Assembly: GCA_022497155.1 (NCBI GenBank)
Contig: MU385714.1
Location: forward strand, 806,001 to 870,000
From: Whalleya microplaca
Lineage: Eukaryota; Ascomycota; Sordariomycetes; Xylariales; Xylariaceae
Length of the DNA stretch: 64,000 nucleotides
Direction of reading: 5' to 3'
Part shown: positions 17,605 to 61,417 of the stretch, one piece after another
Layout: the number at the start of each line of letters is the position of its first letter
Numbering within the stretch: the first letter of the stretch is position 1
Position numbers and translations under genes: made by a program
The notes under the pieces: model-generated
Databases searched by the model: none
Told to the model about the DNA's origin: nothing
What the model saw: the letters and a program-made list of their open reading frames with translations, nothing else

Positions 17605-20600
17605 ATGAGTGAACCGTCTCTTGTACAATCGTCAGGGAGCTCAAGCTCCGCAATTATAAGCAGTAACAGCGCAGAAACCCAATCGACAACGATGTATGAG
17701 TCACCTCCATCGTCCTCGGAGAGTTCAGGCTCTGAGTATTCGAGTAGCGAAGATGGCCACAGTTCTGTCGTCAACCAGGGTCACAACGGCTCTGACATTC
17801 CATCGAGTCAACCCGTTGAAACTGAGACTAAAGACATTCCTACCGAGGAGGAGCAGGTCAAGGATTCGAACATAATACATGCTCGTGCGTACCAGCTTGA
17901 GATGTTTGAAGAAAGCCTCAGACGGAATATCATCGTTGCTGTCAGTAATTTTCATTTGCTTGTTACTTTTACATAGTTGACAGGCTCTTGCAGATGGAAA
18001 CAGGTAGTGGGAAGACGCAAGTGTAAGTTTCTACAGCTTTGATGAGTTGGGTACGAAACAGGTTTTCAGCTCCGATCCAGCTTGTGACCCCTATACTCTA
18101 ATGTAGACTCACATTTATCCAGCGCTGTACTCCGGATCCAGGCCGAACTTGAAAGATCGCCTCCAGACAAGGTAAGCACAGCTTGACTTTTACTATATCT
18201 ACTTAGAACTGACTTGACGTAGATCATTTGGTTCTTAGCTCCAACTGTCGCCCTAGGGGAGCAACAGTTCAGAGTACTCAAATCACAGATCCCCGCTGTC
18301 CAAATCAAGCTTCTCGTTGGGGCAGACAATATCGATACCTGGACAGAAACCCGCATATGGGATGACTACTTGCGAAATGTTCGCATCATGGTGTCAACTT
18401 ATCAGGTTCTCCTAGATGCGATCTCACACGCCTTTGTGCGTATGGATCGGCTATCCTTAATAGTGTTCGATGAAGGTCAGTCGTATCCCTCTTCTCATAC
18501 TACTGGAACTCATGAAGAAATTAGCCCATAATTGTACTGGTAATCATTCGGGTTGTGGGATAATGGCTCGATACCGCGACAACAAGGCTATGGGCCTTCC
18601 AGTCCCGTCAATACTAGGTCTCACAGCCAGCCCCGTCGTAAAATCGATGCCCGACTCTTTGCAAGACATTGAGAATACGCTAGACGCTGTTTGCAAGAGC
18701 CCGAGTATCCATCGAGAAGAGCTCCTGTCTGCAGTGAATCGGCCGGCTATGTCCTGTGTCTTCTACTCCTATCCTGCTCGCGTTCCTTACACCAACAGTA
18801 TGGAAAGCTTGGAAAATGTGTACCAGGGACTGAATATATTTAAAGACCCCTATGTCCTTCGCCTTCAGGCAACGAACACAGAACGCAGTAATGCTGCGCT
18901 GATCAAAACATTGAGAAAAAAGGATACCTTCATTTTCAGTCAGTTCAAGTCCCTCTGTCGAAAGACTGTCGAGCTCTCCCGCGAACTTGGACCGTGGGCT
19001 TCAGATTACTTTATCCGTACTACTGTTACTCAGTACCTCGACTCGGCCAGAAAGAACGACTCTTGGTTCGAGACTTGGGACACCCGGGAGAAACAATACC
19101 TTGCCCGGGAACTGGAAAAGATCGAAATACCAACACCACCAGAACTCAAGGACAACAAATCCCAGATCGGTATATCAAACAAGGTCGCGGCTCTTGTACA
19201 GGAACTTTCATCTTCAGCGGACGACACAATTGCCATTATATTCGTGCGCCAGACAGCCACGGTAGCTGTTCTATCGACAATGTTGTCGAACCACCCCTCT
19301 ATCAAGCATCGTTTTCGCATTGGGACTATGATCGGCACGAGCAATCACGGTGCACGAAAGCGAGACGTTGGCGAACTCATCCGGGCAAACGGCCCTCGAG
19401 ATTTAGAGGGGTTCCGCATGGGTAAACTCAATCTCCTCGTTGCCACAAATGTCCTAGAGGAGGGCATCGACGTTCCAGCATGTAATTTGGTCATATGTTT
19501 CGATGGACCGGGGAACTTGAAGTCGTTTATCCAAAGACGTGGCAGAGCTCGGATGAGAGAATCAAGGCTCGTCCTGATGCTGAGCGGACCAACAAACCAG
19601 CACCACGAGTGGATGGCGCTCGAGGAAGAGATGAAGAAACAGTACCAAGACGATATGAGGGAAGTGAACGAATTGTGGGAGCTCGAAGAATCAGAGCAGC
19701 CGGATATCGAGCCCCTATACATACCGGCGACCGGAGCCAAGCTTGACTTCAACCAAGCGAAATCACACCTGGAACACTTTTGCAGGATCATTGCATATCG
19801 AAAATACGTCGAGGCCCAGCCGTACTATGTCTTCAAACAGACACAAGTCTCTAGAGAAGGCCTTCCGCAGATAAGGGCGACTGTAGTACTGCCTATGTCG
19901 CTTCCCCCTAACCTCAGACGAATCGAGGGCAGTGGGAGTTGGTATTCCGAGAAGAATGCCAGCAAAGACGCAGCTTTTCAGGCCTATGTTGCTCTCTACA
20001 AAGCTGAGTTGGTCAACGACAATTTGATGCCACTGAGAGATGAACTTGAAGAGGAAGGTGTTGAGTCCAGGGATGCGATAGCCGAAGTCAACGAACGCTG
20101 GAATCCGTGGACAGGTATGGCACGCAGTTGGATCGACGCACCGGAGTTATATCAACGTCGCCTGCGCTTGGTAGACCAGGAAGGCAATACGTTAGGCGAA
20201 TTTGATGCTTCACTACCACTCCCGTTCCCGAAACTGTCCACCTTCGAAGTCTTCTGGGATAAAGATACCTCCTGGCGGATCGAAACGGGCGAGATGAACG
20301 TCATATCCGCGCAGCAGCTTGATGTCGACCAGAGTGCGGCACTAGTCGATCTGGCTTATGGGCATCGTCGGGAGGTCAAAGATGCCAAACAAGTGTTACA
20401 TCTTCGATTGCTGACCGAAGAACAGATTCCGTTCCGACAACTCAGAGGTCGGGATATCGTCAAAGAGGGCTGTCTCAACAGCTTATCCCTCATACGTGCC
20501 AATTGGGGGGCTCCCTATTTCTTTGAGGCATGGCTTCCTTCAAAACCACCATTAGACTCAACGCAGTATGTCTCGAGGCAGGTGTCCGAGGAGCCAGTTG

Positions 20601-22316
20601 ATGTACCCTGGTTAGCTCTAAAGAAATGGCCACGGCGACGAGACTTTCTACACCCCGTAGGTAAAGACGCCTCGGCAAAATCCTCGAAGAAGTCGTACCG
20701 CACCATCTACCCTGCGCACCTCTGCCGTATGGATGGCACCCATTTCTCTAACGTTCGACTGGGCTCTCTTATCCCATCAATCACGCACATGGTCGAAGTC
20801 CACCTCGTCGCTGAAGAGCTATGCAACACCATCCTGAAGGAAGTGGCATTTTCGGACACTTCACTTGTCATCACTGCTATCAGCTCTCCAGCAGCTGGCC
20901 AATCCGCAAACTATGAAAGGTACGAGTTCCTCGGCGACTCGGTTCTGAAAATGCTCGCCACTGCAACTGTAACAGCTAATTGTAAGTCCCTATAAAAGGA
21001 TTTTGATGTTGAAATGATTATCTGGCTGACTCCCTGAAGATCCACATTTCCCAGAAGGATATCTTGATGCAAAGAAGTCGAACATTGTATCCAACGCTAG
21101 GTTGTACCGTGCCGCAGTTGAGACGGGCTTGGATAAATTTATCCTATCCCAGAGGTTCAACGGCCGAGAATGGCGACCTCTTTATATCGATGACCTCGCC
21201 CAGGCCGAGGCAGGATCAGGTGGCACGCGGGAGCTGTCGACGAAGACAATTGCTGATGTAGTCGAGGCCCTGATCGGAGCCGCGCTGGTGGATGGTGGCA
21301 TGCCGAAAGCCCTGACCTGCCTCCGACTATTCATCCCCGATGTCGAATGGCGCGATCTCGACTCTGCTTGCCGTATCCTGTTCGATCAAACCCAAATGAG
21401 CACGCACCTGTCGCCAGTCTTAGAACCATTGGAGCAGCTGATCGGCTATTCTTTCCGCAACAAGAATTTACTTCTTGAAGCAACCACGCATTCCTCTTTC
21501 AATTTAACCCCCTGGACAGTTGCTTGCATGGAACGGCTTGAGTTCGTCGGCGATGCCGTCCTCGACAGCATTATCACCTCTGTCTTGTGGTCTTACGACA
21601 AGCGAGAATTGGTACATTACGAGATGCATCTGCTCCGAGCCGCCTCGGTCAATGCAGATATCCTGGGCTTCCTAGAGATGGAGTGGTCAGTCGCGCAAGA
21701 AGCCACAACTATATCGACTAACAAATCCACCGTCGAGACCCAGACTCAGTTCCCCTTCTGGAAGTTCATGCGACACGCGTCAACCGAGATAGGCGCCGCG
21801 CAGCGGGCCACGGAGGAGAGACACGAGAAAGAGAGGGAGGCCATTCTCGATGCCGTGCGGCACGGCTCCGAGTACCCGTGGGCCCTGCTCGCCCACCTCT
21901 GCATCCCCAAGTTCTTCTCCGATTTCTTCGAAAGCCTGCTCGGTGCGGTATGGGTAGACTCCGGCGGGTCTATGGATGTCTGTACGCAGATTGCCGAGAA
22001 GGCGGGCATACTCCCCTACCTGCGACGCATGCTCGCGGATAACGTCGATGTGCTCCACCCGAAGAATCGGCTGGGTAATCTGGTAGCCCGGCGTAATAAG
22101 CAGGTCAAATACCAATCGGAAGTGCGGGAGATGGAAGATGGCTCCAAGCAGCTATTCTGCAAGGTGCTGGTAGACGATGAGCTGGTCACGGAAGTTGGCA
22201 AGGGCGTGAGTAGGGAGGAGGTTGTCACCAGGGCGGCTGATGCTGCGTACAAGCTCCTCAGGGATGCGAGCATCGGAGATACGAAGATTACGACGGATGA
22301 AGCCATGACTGGATGA
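17605..22316 (+). CDS. DCL2: Dicer-like protein 2 (RNA interference endoribonuclease)
   Basis: Cuts double-stranded RNA into small interfering RNAs; fungal Dcl2 is the main antiviral and quelling Dicer. Exons are 17605-17940, 17994-18022, 18123-18171, 18223-18475, 18525-20981 and 21040-22316, giving 1466 aa in continuous frame. A Ser-rich, acidic N-terminus of about 90 residues leads to the Q-motif region HARAYQLEMFEESLRRNIIV. Walker A (METGSGKTQV, residues 113-122) is encoded by a 29-nt exon. The DEAH box is at 221-224, split by an intron. The helicase C domain has NVLEEGIDVPACN and QRRGRARMRES near 559. A Dicer dimerisation domain follows (KSHLEHFCRIIAYRKYVEAQP). RNase IIIa has YERYEFLGDSVLKML near 1018 plus DVVEALIGA. 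RNase IIIb has MERLEFVGDAVLDSI near 1205 plus DFFESLLGA. No clear PAZ domain is visible, as is usual in fungal Dcl2. All catalytic acidic residues appear intact. Confidence 0.97.
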
Positions 22317-26122: not shown

Positions 26123-26225
26123 GGGCAATTAGCTCAGTGGTAGAGCGTTCGCTTTGCATCGAGGCCACTATGTCTCATGTATCATGAACTGCGAAAGGCC
26201 CAGGGTTCAATCCCCTGATTGTCCA
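26123..26225 (+). tRNA. tRNA-Ala, anticodon TGC, with a 31-nt intron
   Basis: The cloverleaf is clear: acceptor arm GGGCAAT pairs with ATTGTCC (one G-U), followed by discriminator A at 26225. The D arm is GCTC-AGTGGTA-GAGC, and the anticodon stem TTCGC (26148-26152) pairs with GCGAA (26191-26195). The loop reads TTTGCA plus T, with anticodon TGC at 26155-26157. The T arm is CAGGG-TTCAATC-CCCTG. The intron, 26159-26189, starts one base 3' of the anticodon, the canonical place for tRNA endonuclease cleavage. A run of five T residues at 26262-26266 could end pol III transcription. Alanine identity is supported by the anticodon and by the A/B box sequence; I checked but did not clearly see the G3-U70 pair in this acceptor arm. 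Confidence 0.93.
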
Positions 26226-50245: not shown

Positions 50246-51351
50246 AATTACGACTAACAGAGGACAGTGGGCTGCAAAGGATACTGTCGGTTGAGTGCAA
50301 GCGACCGCGATGACAAGCTTACGGTTGGTCGAGGTGGTGCAAAGAGCTCGCTGGGTGTGTCGCTGGGTCTGTCGGGTGGAATGGGATGTTGAAAGGATGA
50401 AGAAGCTGGGAGGAATGTGAGGCTGCTAGAATTCACAATGGAGTCCCGCTTGGATTCCCGCTTGGATCTCTTTCGGGCAAAGCATTTCTTATTTCGGTTT
50501 AGTGTGGGGTGTGTTTAGGGCCATGTGGCGGCGAACCCCACTAGCGCCGTTCAGCATTGGCCCTAACCACACTTTGGTTGCCACAAATCGTGCAAGCTAG
50601 CTCTTTAGAGACTATAGTTGATAGATACATATGCAGGGACCTTGGACCCAATCAGACCTCGATTTTCAGTACCTCGATATGCCTTTTGTATTTAACCGCT
50701 ACCTCTGACCTTTGGAGGATGCAAGGCTGACAAAATGGGACATACCCATGATGTCCTCGGCAGCTCCCGAGTCTCTCGAAGTATGGAGTCCTGGCCTGTG
50801 GATCTAGAGAGCCCCTCCATAGCTTGATCACCAAATATAAAGAAAATGGAGATTTCATCAAGATATACGGACTTGAATCAGCATCGACCAGGTTACGATT
50901 ATGCTTCAGCTAATCTGCATCAGCAACAAGATTCAAGGCTTGGGTAGTTCTTATAGTTCTACGTTGGCTGTTTGAAGGAAATCTGACTTGAATTTGTTCG
51001 ACAATCCCAATGAGTACTATCTATATATGGCGTGGCGTAAAATTAGGAGGGAGGTCTTTGATCATGATAGCATCGATTCCCTAATGTGAGAGATGGACGG
51101 TTCTTTTTCGACGAAGACCCGACGAAGACCCGACGAAGACGCGGTAAAGCAGTGATTAAGCTACTCGTTTCTTTCTTAGTTTAAAGTAGGCCAAATTCTC
51201 ACGACCAGGACCATACGCCTATGATGCCGATAGCTCTGTCAATATAAACATGATAAATCAAATGATGATGAACCAGCACATTGATCGGTCACTATTTGAT
51301 TTGACAAGCCTTCTTCACAGCCCTAGGCAAGCTAGAGACAGTAATGAAAAC
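50246..51351. other. Intergenic, between RPB3 and U2 snRNA
   Basis: The first 200 nt should contain the RPB3 promoter. The region beyond is AT-rich without coding sequence. An 11-nt tandem repeat lies at 51110-51142. A long-range 3' processing signal for U2 could lie near 51300-51350 but was not recognised. Confidence 0.5.
51110..51142 (+). repeat. Tandem repeat, 11-nt unit GACGAAGACCC, three copies
   Basis: Two perfect copies and one with a changed end. It lies about 210 nt beyond the 3' end of the U2 snRNA gene. No function suggested. Confidence 0.8.
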
Positions 51352-51602
51352 GGTTCGCGTCGCCTGGAGGCAGTGTAATACCAGGGACACAGTGGAAGCG
51401 ATCATGCGCAAGCACAGAGGATGCGCTCCCAGAGATCAAAAATAAGAATAATCACGATTGAGTCCAAGTAGGACTCTTTCAGAGATTAAACTGAAAAGAA
51501 CAGATACTACACTTGATCTAAGCCAAAACTGTAGTGACCGGATTAGCAGATATCCTTCGTTGGCGGCAGTATGGGTGGTGTTCACTTACGGCAAAGAGAG
51601 CT
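51352..51602 (-). ncRNA. U2 spliceosomal snRNA, interrupted by a 61-nt spliceosomal-type intron
   Basis: U2 recognises the intron branch point. Read on the minus strand from about 51602, the 5' end is AGCTCTCTTTGCC (51602-51590). Then come GTAAGT and 55 more nt ending CACTACAG (intron 51589-51529), followed by TTTTGGCTTAGATCAAG (from 51528), the branch-site-pairing GTAGTA at 51510-51505, and CTGTTCTTTTCAGTTTAATC. Removing the intron restores the canonical stem-loop I, GCC-TTTT-GGC. Stem IIb is the hairpin GAGTCC-TACTT-GGACTC; the Sm site TTATTTTTGA is near 51435-51445; stem-loop IV with CCTGG-TATTACACTGC-CTCCAGG lies at about 51361-51386. Mature length is about 190 nt, as for typical U2. The intron has branch-like CTGCTAAT. 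Exact ends are estimates. Confidence 0.93.
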
Positions 51603-51918
51603 AAAGAGGAAAGGAAAAGAAGGGTGGAAGGACGGCGGGCAAGATTTCGTTTTGTGTACCTGAGGGCGGTGAGTGGGGGCGGTCATAATTCTGCCGGCAG
51701 GAAATCTGGTGACCTTGTGCCTCCAAGAAATGTTCAATGGGGCTAATTGATGGGGCCAGACGAATGACAGAATGAGCGCTGTTGGGTCATAAAAAAAGTT
51801 CTATCAGAGTTCAAGCTACCGGCCTATACAAGCCTTCATACACAATCCATTCCTATACGCGCGACTATTTCTCAAATCCAGTTTCCGAGTAATATACGCA
51901 CATTTTATACCCGCAACT
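51603..51918. promoter_or_regulatory. Divergent promoter region, U2 snRNA and mitochondrial GrpE
   Basis: A spacer of about 316 nt separates two head-to-head transcription units. Directly upstream of U2 (minus strand) is a pyrimidine-rich stretch (CTTTTCCTTTCCTCTTTAG). I recognised no TATA box or snRNA proximal element. Confidence 0.5.
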
Positions 51919-58217: not shown

Positions 58218-61200
58218 TTATTTCTTTGCCTTGCCCTTAGCTGCACTGGCTTTCTTGCGCGCCTTGGGCTTTTCTTCTTCATCATCCTCGGCAGCCTTAG
58301 CAGCCTTCTTACTACCCTTCTTTGCAGCTTTAGCTTTGGGTTTCTTGATGAATTTATCCTTGTCGAGGTCATCATCATCGTCGGCCTCGACAGGTTCGAC
58401 GGCTTCTGCTTCGTCTTCTTCATCTAGGGCCTCCTCAAGATCCGGCTTCTCTTTCGCGGCAGCCTTGGGTGCTGCAACGTTACTTGCCTTCATGAAAGGA
58501 ACTGGATGGGACATGGTATTATACCTATTTGGATTAGTTCAGGGATCACTGCTAAGTTGCTCATATTGACTTACAGTCTGGTGAAAGTAGACTTGGTCTG
58601 GGTGTCAATATTGACACGTTCTTCATCTTGAGGACCGACACCCAATTCCTTGATCGAGTCGAAATCTTCTCTGGTAAGGAAATAACTGTCCATAAGCTCG
58701 ATGACTTCTTCCACAGATTCCTTGCCATCATCCGCGAGTCTTTTTATGAGCTGCGTCCAGAGCACCGGCAAGTATTGCTGGCGAATCTCGTTGTGATCAC
58801 CCGAGGATCTAAGCCGCATATGCGAATGGATCTCGCGAATGTATCTGCCAAGCTTACCAGATTTGCTGTTGTTGCCAAGCCAAGAGGTGAAATTCGATCC
58901 TATCATCTGGCCGGCCACAAAGCTAGCTGGCCGGACTGTGCTGAAGACCGCGTGCGTTGGCATGAGACTCCAGTGCTGCTGCGGCCCATGAATCATTCTA
59001 TCCACCAAGTCACCATCGCTGATGCTTTCAGCGGCCTTATCTACCGCTTCCAGAGCTTTCAGGTTCGCTTCTCGTTTGTTGTATTGGTTTTGGTTCAGCA
59101 CAGCGGGCTTCGTTCGTAAAAAGTTCTCCTGTATCATCAAATAACTGAACTCGTGGTCGTTGAAATAAAGTTGAATCTTGTCGTTGAGGGTAGCCTTGCT
59201 TGCCGGAGAAAACAGACCACCACCGAGCATCTTTTGACAGATATCCCAAGGCTTCAGCACAATCGACTTCTCCCAGGCCTTCGACATGTTCTTGCTCTGG
59301 TCATAGTCCATGGAGGTTTGATCCAGCTTGACTGTAGACATCATGTTGATGATTTGTCTGATATCCCGATTGCTGCCCTCGATGAGGGCATCGAGTACTT
59401 GTGGCGAAAGCTTCAGGCCTTCTCTGTGACAGATCGTCATCATCCGTGAGCGAATCTGGTCGATTTGTGGTCTTTGGAACTTGATGTCAAATGTTACGAA
59501 GTCAAATGGCTTCATCTTGGGGAGTTTCCGCTCGTTGCAGATCAGGATAAGGGGCACTTCGGTCTTCTTGCAGAACTTTGCGAGGGCACCAACGCCTCCA
59601 CGATCACCAGCAGACATTCCGTCCACCTCATCCATCACAAGGACGATATTTTTCTTTTCCTTGTCCACCTTCTTCCCATCACCCGCGAAGTACCCATTGA
59701 GTGATGTATTGTTCATGACCTCGCTCACGCCAGCTTCTACAAGCTTTTTGCTACGTGAGTCGCTGGCATTGCTCTCTAAAACATCATACCCTTCCAGTTT
59801 GGCGGCTAGGTGCGCTGCTGTCGTCTTGCCGATCCCAGGGGGGCCGGAAACGATGATGGCGCGTGCGCCACCCATGCCATCGGCTCCTCGCTTCTGGAAG
59901 TTGTACTTCCGAGCTTTGTGCCAATTCCTCAACCAGTTCTGGATCTTTTCCACGCCGGCCTTGTTTCCGCAGATGTGGCTCGCCTGGGTCGGCGCATACT
60001 TTACCGTCCACAATTGAGCAGTAGTAGGGGTTGAAGTAGGAGGAGCAGGACCAGTGGCACCGCGGGCAACGGCAGCTTTTCGGGCCTTCTCGGCTTCTGC
60101 TTTCCGTTTCTTCTCTTCTTGCTCCATCTCGGCGGCTTGCTGTTTGATCTTTTCCTCCTCTAACTTTCGCTTTTCCCTCACCTTCTCGGCGCCTTTGCCG
60201 CCTCCGCCACCAGCCGGGAGGCGACGGATGAGCTCGAACAGCCCCTCCTCATTGATAGTCTTGATACCATGTTGGCGAATCTTAGCAAGCTTGCTAGGTC
60301 CAGCATCCTCTCCTAGCACTACGTAGTTGGTCTTGCTACTTGGCGCACCGGTAATCTTGCCACCGTAGCGCTTGACTAAAGCTTGAGCATCTTCGCGTGC
60401 AACGGTTGTCAGCTGTCCGGTGAATACGAATGTTAGGCCAGCTAGACAATCTTCCTCTCCCTCGGGCAATTCAGCGGTAGGGTTTGGCGGAGCGGCGGAG
60501 TTCCCCCCTCCTGCCGCCGCCTTTCTCCAGTCAAATTTGGTATCCGGGTCTTTAGCTGGTGGGGTTGGGGGTCGGACCGTGGGAATGTCATCGAAAATCG
60601 CTTGGATTTCTGCATTTTCAGCTTCATCCGGCTTCTTGGCTCTCGGTGCTCTCGGCTTCTTTGGTGCTGGTTTCTTGCGCGAGGGGGGTTCCTCGTCGTC
60701 GTCGTCTTCTTCGGATTCGGGTTCCGGCGTCTTCCTCTTCTTAGCTGAAGTAGCCGCCTTGCTATTCTTTGTAGCTTTTGGGGCAAGGGGAGCATCGTCA
60801 TCATCATCATTATCGACTGGCTTGCTACGAGAAGCGACTCTCTTCGGCTTAGGCAGAAACTCTTCTTCGCTTTCCTCCTCGACGTAGTCGTCGTTCTTTC
60901 TCTTATTGCGGCTCTTCGCATCCGCAGCAAATATGTCATCCCCGGCATCGCCATCGTCATCCATGAAAGCATCCTCATCATTATCTAGGCTGTGCCGCTT
61001 AAAGCTAGTTGAGGAGCGTTTCTTTGATGCACCCTGACCACTTTTGTCTGCAGCAGGAGGAGCTTCTTTCGTCACCTTCTGTTTGTTCCTGGGGCTTGAC
61101 CGAACCTCGACTTTGGGCTTTGCCGGTGACTTGGCATCGGCCTTCGCAGCAGGTTGGCTTTTTGACTTGCTCGAGGCGAAGTATGCGCTTGCCGTGGTAG

Positions 61201-61417
61201 CCGTTCCCTGGATCTTGTCGTCGGCCGGCTTCTTCTTCGGGGTAGATCTAGTACCAAGTTTCTTCGTCTCAACGACTGGCTCGTCGTCGTCGCTATCGTC
61301 AACCACTTTTCGTCCCTTGGTACGCCTTTTCGGTGGCTCTTCTTGCGCTTTCTTCGGAGCCGGCTTTGCAGGGGCTGCACCCCCCTTAGGCCCAAAGAAG
61401 GAGCGAATATCGGCCAT
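58218..61417 (-). CDS. RFC1: Replication factor C subunit 1 (clamp loader large subunit)
   Basis: The largest subunit of the RFC complex, which loads PCNA onto primed DNA. Exons are 61417-58575 and 58524-58218, joined over a 50-nt intron in frame, giving 1049 aa. The N-terminus MADIRSFFGPK is a PCNA-interacting (PIP-like) motif. A long Lys/Asp/Ser-rich disordered region covers 10-310. The BRCT domain is about 319-402 (LAGLTFVFTGQL ... TNYVVLGEDAGPSKL). After a coiled, charged segment the AAA+ domain shows Walker A GPPGIGKTT (525-533), Walker B VLVMDEVDG (592-600), and the sensor region NERKLPKMKPFDFVTFDIKF. The C-terminal RFC1 collar domain contains RYIREIHSHMRLRSSGDH. The short exon 2 (YNTMSHPVPFMKASNVAAPK onward) ends in a Lys-rich acidic tail. 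Everything expected is present. Confidence 0.97.

What the first reader, a model, noticed from the sequence alone, without database searches (positions are those of the whole stretch)
51529..51589. Spliceosomal-type intron inside the U2 snRNA gene
The minus strand encodes an otherwise canonical U2 snRNA, but its first stem-loop is cut by 61 nt that begin GTAAGT, contain a CTGCTAAT branch-like site 22-29 nt before the end, and finish CACTACAG. Excision gives CTCTCTTTGCC joined to TTTTGGCTTAGATCAAGTG, the universally conserved U2 5' sequence. So a core RNA of the spliceosome appears to need the spliceosome for its own maturation. The insertion sits at the stem/loop junction, between the U2 strand that pairs with U6 in helix II and the helix I/branch-site strand, so an unspliced RNA should be inactive. 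Introns in U6 are known in several fungi, and, from memory, in U2 of a basidiomycete yeast; I do not know of a described case in a filamentous ascomycete.
Basis: partly seen in the sequence, partly recalled or inferred. Interest (0 to 1): 0.92.

Follow-up and report, generated by a model that had tools for sequence, protein, structure and literature searches.

The report
Intron inside duplicated fungal U2 genes
In the fungus Whalleya microplaca, three of seven copies of the gene for U2, an RNA at the heart of the intron-removing machine, carry an intron themselves while other copies in the same genome do not, so the machine probably helps to make part of its own U2 but need not make all of it.

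Summary
Minus-strand 51529-51589 is a 61-nt GTAAGT...CACTACAG insert exactly at the GCC|UUUU stem/loop junction of a U2 snRNA gene (Rfam 132.9 bits). The genome (Whalleya microplaca) holds seven U2 loci. L001 and L002 lack the insert and show the exact empty site; L004 and L005 carry an intron at the same site; L006 is uninterrupted and diverged; L007 looks like a truncated pseudogene. Window versus L005 intron: splice signals 14/14 identical, body 22/47 (P=0.00017). L004 and L005 changed 15 and 17 paired bases yet kept 39/41 and 41/41 helix pairs (nulls 31.5, 32.7), so they evolved as working U2, which requires intron removal. "U2 needs the spliceosome" is too strong: uninterrupted copies exist. 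The window copy has a degraded TATA box and an exon 2 that looks converted by an intronless copy, and gives no constraint signal of its own. snRNA introns are a known kind (fungal U6; U2 of Rhodotorula hasegawae); I found no ascomycete U2 intron in a limited library. Transcription and splicing are not shown.

The parts
51529..51589 (-). 61-nt spliceosomal-type intron GTAAGT...CACTACAG
   Evidence: sequence; absent from L001 and L002 at the same site, present in L004 and L005
51542..51549 (-). branch-site-like CTGCTAAT; probable branch A at 51543, followed by 14 nt of intron
   Evidence: CTGCTAA kept in all three intron-bearing copies
51590..51602 (-). U2 exon 1, AGCTCTCTTTGCC (13 nt if transcription starts at the A; start inferred)
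   Evidence: identical in L001-L005; the homology of the pseudogene-like L007 to L001 begins at this A
51354..51528 (-). U2 exon 2, TTTTGGCTTAGATCAAG...GACGCGAA, with branch-recognition GTAGTA and Sm-like ATTTTTG (both motifs recalled)
   Evidence: Rfam U2; 173 of 175 positions equal L001 (50/50 and 123/125)
51309..51351 (-). 3' hairpin shared by U1, U2 and U4 genes of this genome; probable 3'-end processing signal (inferred)
   Evidence: 12-sequence alignment, 16 predicted pairs, 8 with changes on both sides in at least one sequence
51664..51671 (-). CACCGCCC upstream element at -69, recurring upstream of several snRNA genes
   Evidence: 8/8 match in 5 of 15 loci examined and 7/8 in 4 more; two of these nine (L006, L012) lie far from -70. 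Motif chosen by eye, no significance test
51651..51658 (-). degenerate TATA-like TACACAAA at -56, where L001, L002 and L005 have TATATATA or TATAAATA

Best explanation
The insert is an ordinary GT-AG spliceosomal intron in one member of a dispersed U2 gene family with and without the intron. The gene is transcribed as a capped precursor with a very short first exon (about 13 nt); the spliceosome removes the 61 nt and so restores stem-loop I and the U2 5' end; a 3' hairpin guides 3' trimming. Intronless paralogues supply U2 independently, so U2's dependence on its own machine is not obligate. Shown here: intron anatomy, empty site, seven loci, signal conservation, compensatory changes in the intron-bearing copies L004 and L005. 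Inferred: transcription, splicing, 3' processing, and that the window copy, whose TATA box is degraded, contributes little.
For: Exact empty site in L001 and L002; intron at the same site in 3 of 7 loci. Signals 14/14 versus body 22/47 between window and L005 introns (Fisher P=0.00017). GTAAGT donor, RCTRAY branch and 14-15 nt after the branch A fit the fungal U3 introns of PMC5832005 section 3.2. Helix pairs kept in L004 39/41 and L005 41/41 against nulls of 31.5 and 32.7 (0 of 5000 trials reached either), with 3 and 5 double-change pairs; L007 keeps 24/36, null 25.6. The 3' hairpin is present in six of seven U2 loci, L007 excepted. The predicted fold of the spliced 5' part has the core of stem-loop I, that of the unspliced part has not.
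Against: No RNA data. The window copy differs from L001 at 2 sites, neither paired, so it carries no compensatory signal of its own. Its TATA box, and L004's, are weak. For the closest pair (window, L004) signals 14/14 against body 41/47 is not significant (P=0.19). The intron consensus alone only slightly exceeds shuffles (4 against a maximum of 3). At 61-62 nt it is shorter than the 92-nt average of fungal U3 introns.
Confidence: 0.85

Rival explanations
1. The intron-bearing copies are dead: the insert is a relic in U2 pseudogenes and all U2 comes from L001, L002 and L006.
For: Intronless copies matching the whole model exist; weak TATA in the window copy and in L004; no expression data.
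Against: L004 and L005 keep helix pairing far above the null despite 15 and 17 paired-site changes; intron signals are kept while the body diverges; the covarying 3' hairpin is kept; L005 has TATAAATA at -54. L007, the pseudogene-like copy, looks quite different. For the window copy alone this rival is much stronger than for L005.
Confidence: 0.12
2. Origin: the intron was gained in U2 by reverse splicing of an excised intron into the snRNA followed by reverse transcription, then spread by duplication. The alternative is that it is old and was lost from the intronless copies by cDNA-mediated conversion. This concerns origin, not present function, so its odds do not compete with the other explanations.
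For: The only U6 gene found also carries an intron, in its ACAGA box, so two snRNAs that pair with each other are hit in one genome. Exon 2 of the window copy sides with L001 while its 3' element sides with L004 (23:1 versus 2:7 sites, P=6.3e-05), so exon tracts seem to move between copies.
Against: A whole-genome search with the window intron found only itself and L004's (it missed the diverged L005 intron, so it reaches close relatives only). The tree of six copies is unresolved, 3 of 3 inner branches open. No related species could be searched, so gain and loss cannot be told apart.
Confidence: 0.3
3. Assembly or contamination artefact.
For: None found.
Against: Three loci on contigs C5, C6 and C16 whose similarity is confined to the gene region, with diverged introns.
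Confidence: 0.01

Closest known systems
mRNA-type intron in the U2 snRNA gene of Rhodotorula hasegawae (Takahashi et al. 1993, Mol Cell Biol 13:5613; title seen in the reference list of PMC2586383; paper not held; content recalled)
   Same: mRNA-type intron in a fungal U2 gene (title); about 60 nt long (recalled).
   Different: Recalled: that intron lies just downstream of the branch-recognition stretch; here it is upstream, in stem-loop I. Host here is an ascomycete, and intronless paralogues coexist.
U6 snRNA introns of fungi (S. pombe, Tani and Ohshima 1989; survey Canzler et al. 2016; both seen only as references; the survey is not held)
   Same: mRNA-type intron in a core spliceosomal RNA; the U6 gene of this same genome has one.
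   Different: Different snRNA. Only one U6 gene was found here, so there the dependence looks obligate; for U2 it does not.
Introns in fungal U3 snoRNA genes (PMC5832005; abstract, sections 3.2 and 4 and reference list read)
   Same: Spliceosomal introns in the first stem-loop of a small RNA gene, in most Pezizomycotina analysed there; eight genomes have paralogues with and without the intron.
   Different: U3 acts on rRNA, and the authors hold an effect of the intron on U3 function unlikely. U2 is itself part of the splicing machine.

Membership tests
U2 spliceosomal snRNA (RF00004) | Covariance-model score over the gathering cut-off | tested here: met
   132.9 bits against a cut-off of 46
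U2 spliceosomal snRNA (RF00004) | Branch-recognition GTAGTA and Sm-type site (motifs recalled) | tested here: met
   GTGTAGTATC and ATTTTTG read in exon 2
U2 spliceosomal snRNA (RF00004) | Stem-loop I, in the RNA after intron removal | tested here: met
   exon 1 and the first 50 nt of exon 2 equal those of L001 and L002, whose stem-loop I pairs are all standard; core stem in the fold. Broken in the unspliced form
Major-class spliceosomal intron | GT-AG borders with fungal donor consensus | tested here: met
   GTAAGT ... CAG
Major-class spliceosomal intron | RCTRAY branch site at a fungal distance from the acceptor | tested here: met
   GCTAAT, 14 nt follow the branch A; range given as 6-36 nt in PMC5832005
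Major-class spliceosomal intron | Exact excision in vivo | not testable with these tools
   no RNA data; only the empty site in paralogues
snRNA-gene introns of fungi | Intron in an expressed, functional snRNA gene | tested here: inconclusive
   compensatory changes in L004 and L005 imply function; the window copy gives no such signal; expression untested

The most novel reading that the evidence does not exclude
Whalleya runs two U2 supplies, a constitutive intronless one and a splicing-dependent one, beside a sole U6 gene that is also splicing-dependent. U2 and U6 output would then fall when splicing capacity falls and recover with it: a self-referential control of spliceosome amount, with the U2 intron perhaps first inserted by reverse splicing inside the spliceosome.
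Probability: 0.12. Interest if true: 0.8.

Novelty: new member of a known kind. Interest (0 to 1): 0.55.

Why it matters
One genome holds intron-bearing and intronless versions of the same core spliceosomal RNA at one exact site, with exon sequences that can mostly be told apart. That makes the old question of how introns enter and leave snRNA genes directly testable, and lets one measure whether a spliceosome part that must itself be spliced contributes to the pool. It also corrects the stronger claim that U2 here depends on splicing.

Tried and rejected
Introner-like family: a search of the genome with the 61-nt window intron returned only itself and the L004 copy. It did not return the diverged L005 intron, so it excludes close relatives only. 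The L005 intron was not used as a query.

Intron masking U2's own branch-recognition stretch: the best complementarity is reached by 393, 740 and 109 of 1000 shuffles for L003, L004 and L005; chance.

Relatives outside this genome: a 27-base U2 core gave 0 matches in viral contigs and in genome contigs. A 22-base core gave 0 in viral contigs and 4 stretches on 3 contigs, all filed as bacterial MAGs, in genome contigs. Of the five places read, L026 and L029 show an uninterrupted CGGCCTTTTGGCTA 5' end, L027 shows CCTTTTGGCTA up to the contig end, one L028 place is cut off by the stretch end and the other is no complete U2. No fungus is named among them, so the spread of the intron among fungi is untested.

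Papers: no report of a U2 intron in an ascomycete among the rows that I saw (titles and abstract starts only): 0 of 0, 20 of 46, 30 of 157, 3 of 3, 0 of 0, 15 of 36, 4 of 4, 5 of 5, 6 of 6. The library is open-licence only and two key papers, PMC4829304 and PMC360287, are not held. Absence from print is therefore not claimed. One search covered the species name (7 papers listed, none opened).

Method faults: the pattern for the 3' element overran in L005 (1425 nt), so its 'three' values for L005 are discarded. In one search the L007 sequence was cut too long (1670 nt) and stretched the alignment; one search dropped the columns empty in L001-L006, and L007 was scored on 36 of 41 pairs. L006 (35/41, null 32.4, P=0.08; double changes P=0.28) is inconclusive. 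The upstream region gives no clear mosaic signal (18:25 with L001, 19:19 with L002). With L002 in place of L001 the mosaic test is weaker (23:5 versus 2:4, P=0.03). The 12 sequences were cut by eye around the shared TTTTC..GAAGA motif: 12 of the 13 U1, U2 and U4 loci, L007 left out because no such element was seen there. ARAGORN, in bacterial mode, found no tRNA. U3 was found once (L034) and not examined.

Full report
OBSERVATION. The minus strand at 51529-51589 reads GTAAGT...CACTACAG, 61 nt, between TTTAGCTCTCTTTGCC and TTTTGGCTTAGATCAAGTG. Rfam places U2 at 51349-51543 minus with 132.9 bits; model positions 1-14 are forced onto intron bases and 3 of the 7 stem-loop I pairs are non-standard. 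The branch-like CTGCTAAT is 14-21 nt before the intron end, not 22-29 as first stated.

GENOME. The window lies on contig C5 of a 48.1-Mb, 114-contig assembly. The RFC1 ORF at 58571-61417 is 100% identical to a Whalleya microplaca protein on a contig of 1,374,102 bases, the length of C5. NCBI places the species in Sordariomycetes, Xylariales, Xylariaceae.

U2 FAMILY. Two searches give the same seven U2 loci: the covariance model and a 17-base core with up to one mismatch (all seven exact). L003 is the window copy. L001 (160.9 bits) and L002 (160.5) read straight through TTTGCC-TTTTGGC. L004 (125.1) has a 61-nt and L005 (124.6) a 62-nt intron at the same site. L006 (120.9) is uninterrupted with a shorter loop. 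L007 (71.8) is uninterrupted; its homology to L001 starts at the predicted first base and ends after 134 nt, it has no TATA box near -55 and no recognisable 3' hairpin, so it is probably a truncated pseudogene. So 3 of 7 loci bear the intron, 3 without it match the whole model well, and 1 without it looks dead.

IS IT AN INTRON? The empty-site comparison fixes the borders without ambiguity, and they fall on GT and AG. Between the window and L005 the signals (GTAAGT, TGCTAA, AG) are 14/14 identical and the remaining aligned body 22/47 (Fisher P=0.00017); L004 against L005 gives the same figures; window against L004 gives 14/14 and 41/47 (P=0.19). Donor, branch motif and branch-to-acceptor distance fit the fungal U3 introns described in PMC5832005 (section 3.2); those average 92 nt, so this one is shorter. 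The window intron has no close relative in the genome other than L004's, which speaks against a young introner family, though that search missed the diverged L005 intron.

DO INTRON-BEARING COPIES WORK? Against L001, L004 has 24 and L005 26 substitutions, of which 15 and 17 fall in helices; they keep 39/41 and 41/41 of the pairs that L001 forms. Reassigning the same paired-site substitutions at random among paired positions keeps 31.5 and 32.7 on average, and 0 of 5000 trials reached either value. Double-change pairs number 3 and 5 (nulls 0.45 and 0.66). L002 also shows 2 (null 0.14). L006 keeps 35/41 (null 32.4, P=0.08), inconclusive. L007 keeps 24/36 (null 25.6). U2 RNA from L004 and L005 has thus been selected for its structure, and neither gene can make that RNA without losing the intron (inference). 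The window copy differs from L001 at only two sites, both unpaired, so this test is silent on it.

GENE SURROUNDINGS. U1, U2 and U4 genes share a 3' hairpin; across 12 sequences 16 pairs are predicted and 8 have changes on both sides in at least one sequence. The window copy has it. That it is a processing signal is inference, by analogy with RNase III processing of yeast snRNAs (recalled). Upstream, TATATATA or TATAAATA lies at -54 to -57 in L001, L002 and L005, and TATAAAAG at -61 in L006; the window copy has TACACAAA at -56 and L004 only CTAAAATC at -46. The window copy is thus probably weakly transcribed (inference).

MOSAIC WINDOW COPY. In exon 2 the window copy sides with L001 against L004 at 23 sites and with L004 against L001 at 1; in the 3' element the counts are 2 and 7 (P=6.3e-05; with L002 instead of L001, 23:5 versus 2:4, P=0.03). 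Its intron is 55/61 identical to L004's. The simplest reading is that exon 2 was overwritten by an L001-like sequence; a difference in constraint between regions is not excluded. The upstream region is undecided (18:25 and 19:19), and a tree of the six copies other than L007 is unresolved.

MECHANISM. The predicted fold of the spliced 5' part has the GCC/GGC core of stem-loop I, with outer pairs that extend past the family structure; the unspliced part has no stem-loop I, and 159 of 200 shuffles fold at least as well. The intron separates the strand that pairs with U6 in helix II from the helix I and branch-site strand (established U2/U6 knowledge, recalled), so an unspliced RNA should be inactive.

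OTHER snRNAs. One U6 gene was found by two searches; it carries a 53-nt GTAAGT...TACTAAC...CACAG insert at ACGATAC|AGAGAAG. U1 (4 hits, all below the Rfam cut-off), U4 (2) and U5 (1) match over the whole model without such an insert. So in this genome the obligate self-dependence seems to lie with U6, a known kind, rather than with U2.

NOVELTY. snRNA and U3 introns are known; mixed paralogues are known for U3. A U2 intron is known by title from R. hasegawae. I saw no ascomycete U2 intron in the listed rows, in an open-licence library that lacks two key papers. Hence: new member of a known kind, with an unusual and useful mixed gene family.

Noticed in passing
L008 (G000:C4, about 1360466-1360618, + strand): The only U6 gene found in the genome has a 53-nt spliceosomal-type intron in its ACAGA box, so U6 would need splicing to mature.
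   Followed up: partly
51309-51351 minus, and the 3' flanks of L001, L002, L004-L006 (U2), L009-L012 (U1), L014 and L015 (U4): A covarying 16-pair hairpin follows each of these genes; probable common 3'-end processing signal of these snRNA genes in this fungus.
   Followed up: partly
upstream of the snRNA loci: Recurring CACCGCCC (8/8 in L003, L005, L011, L012, L014), CCGGCAGAAT (L003, L004, L006, L012, L014) and a TATA box near -55 in several loci: a possible snRNA promoter architecture. Seen by eye; no significance test.
   Followed up: partly
26123-26225 plus: tRNA gene (Rfam 60.3 bits) with about 31 extra nt at the anticodon arm, presumably a tRNA intron; ARAGORN in bacterial mode finds no tRNA.
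   Followed up: no
L007 (G000:C29:485374-485557): 3'-truncated intronless U2 copy whose homology begins at the predicted transcript start; it may derive from reverse-transcribed U2.
   Followed up: partly
18470-20995 and 21102-22316 plus: ORFs that look by eye like the two main pieces of a Dicer-type protein (helicase and RNase III parts), with an intron-like GTAAGT...CCCAG stretch of 73 nt from 20982 between them.
   Followed up: no
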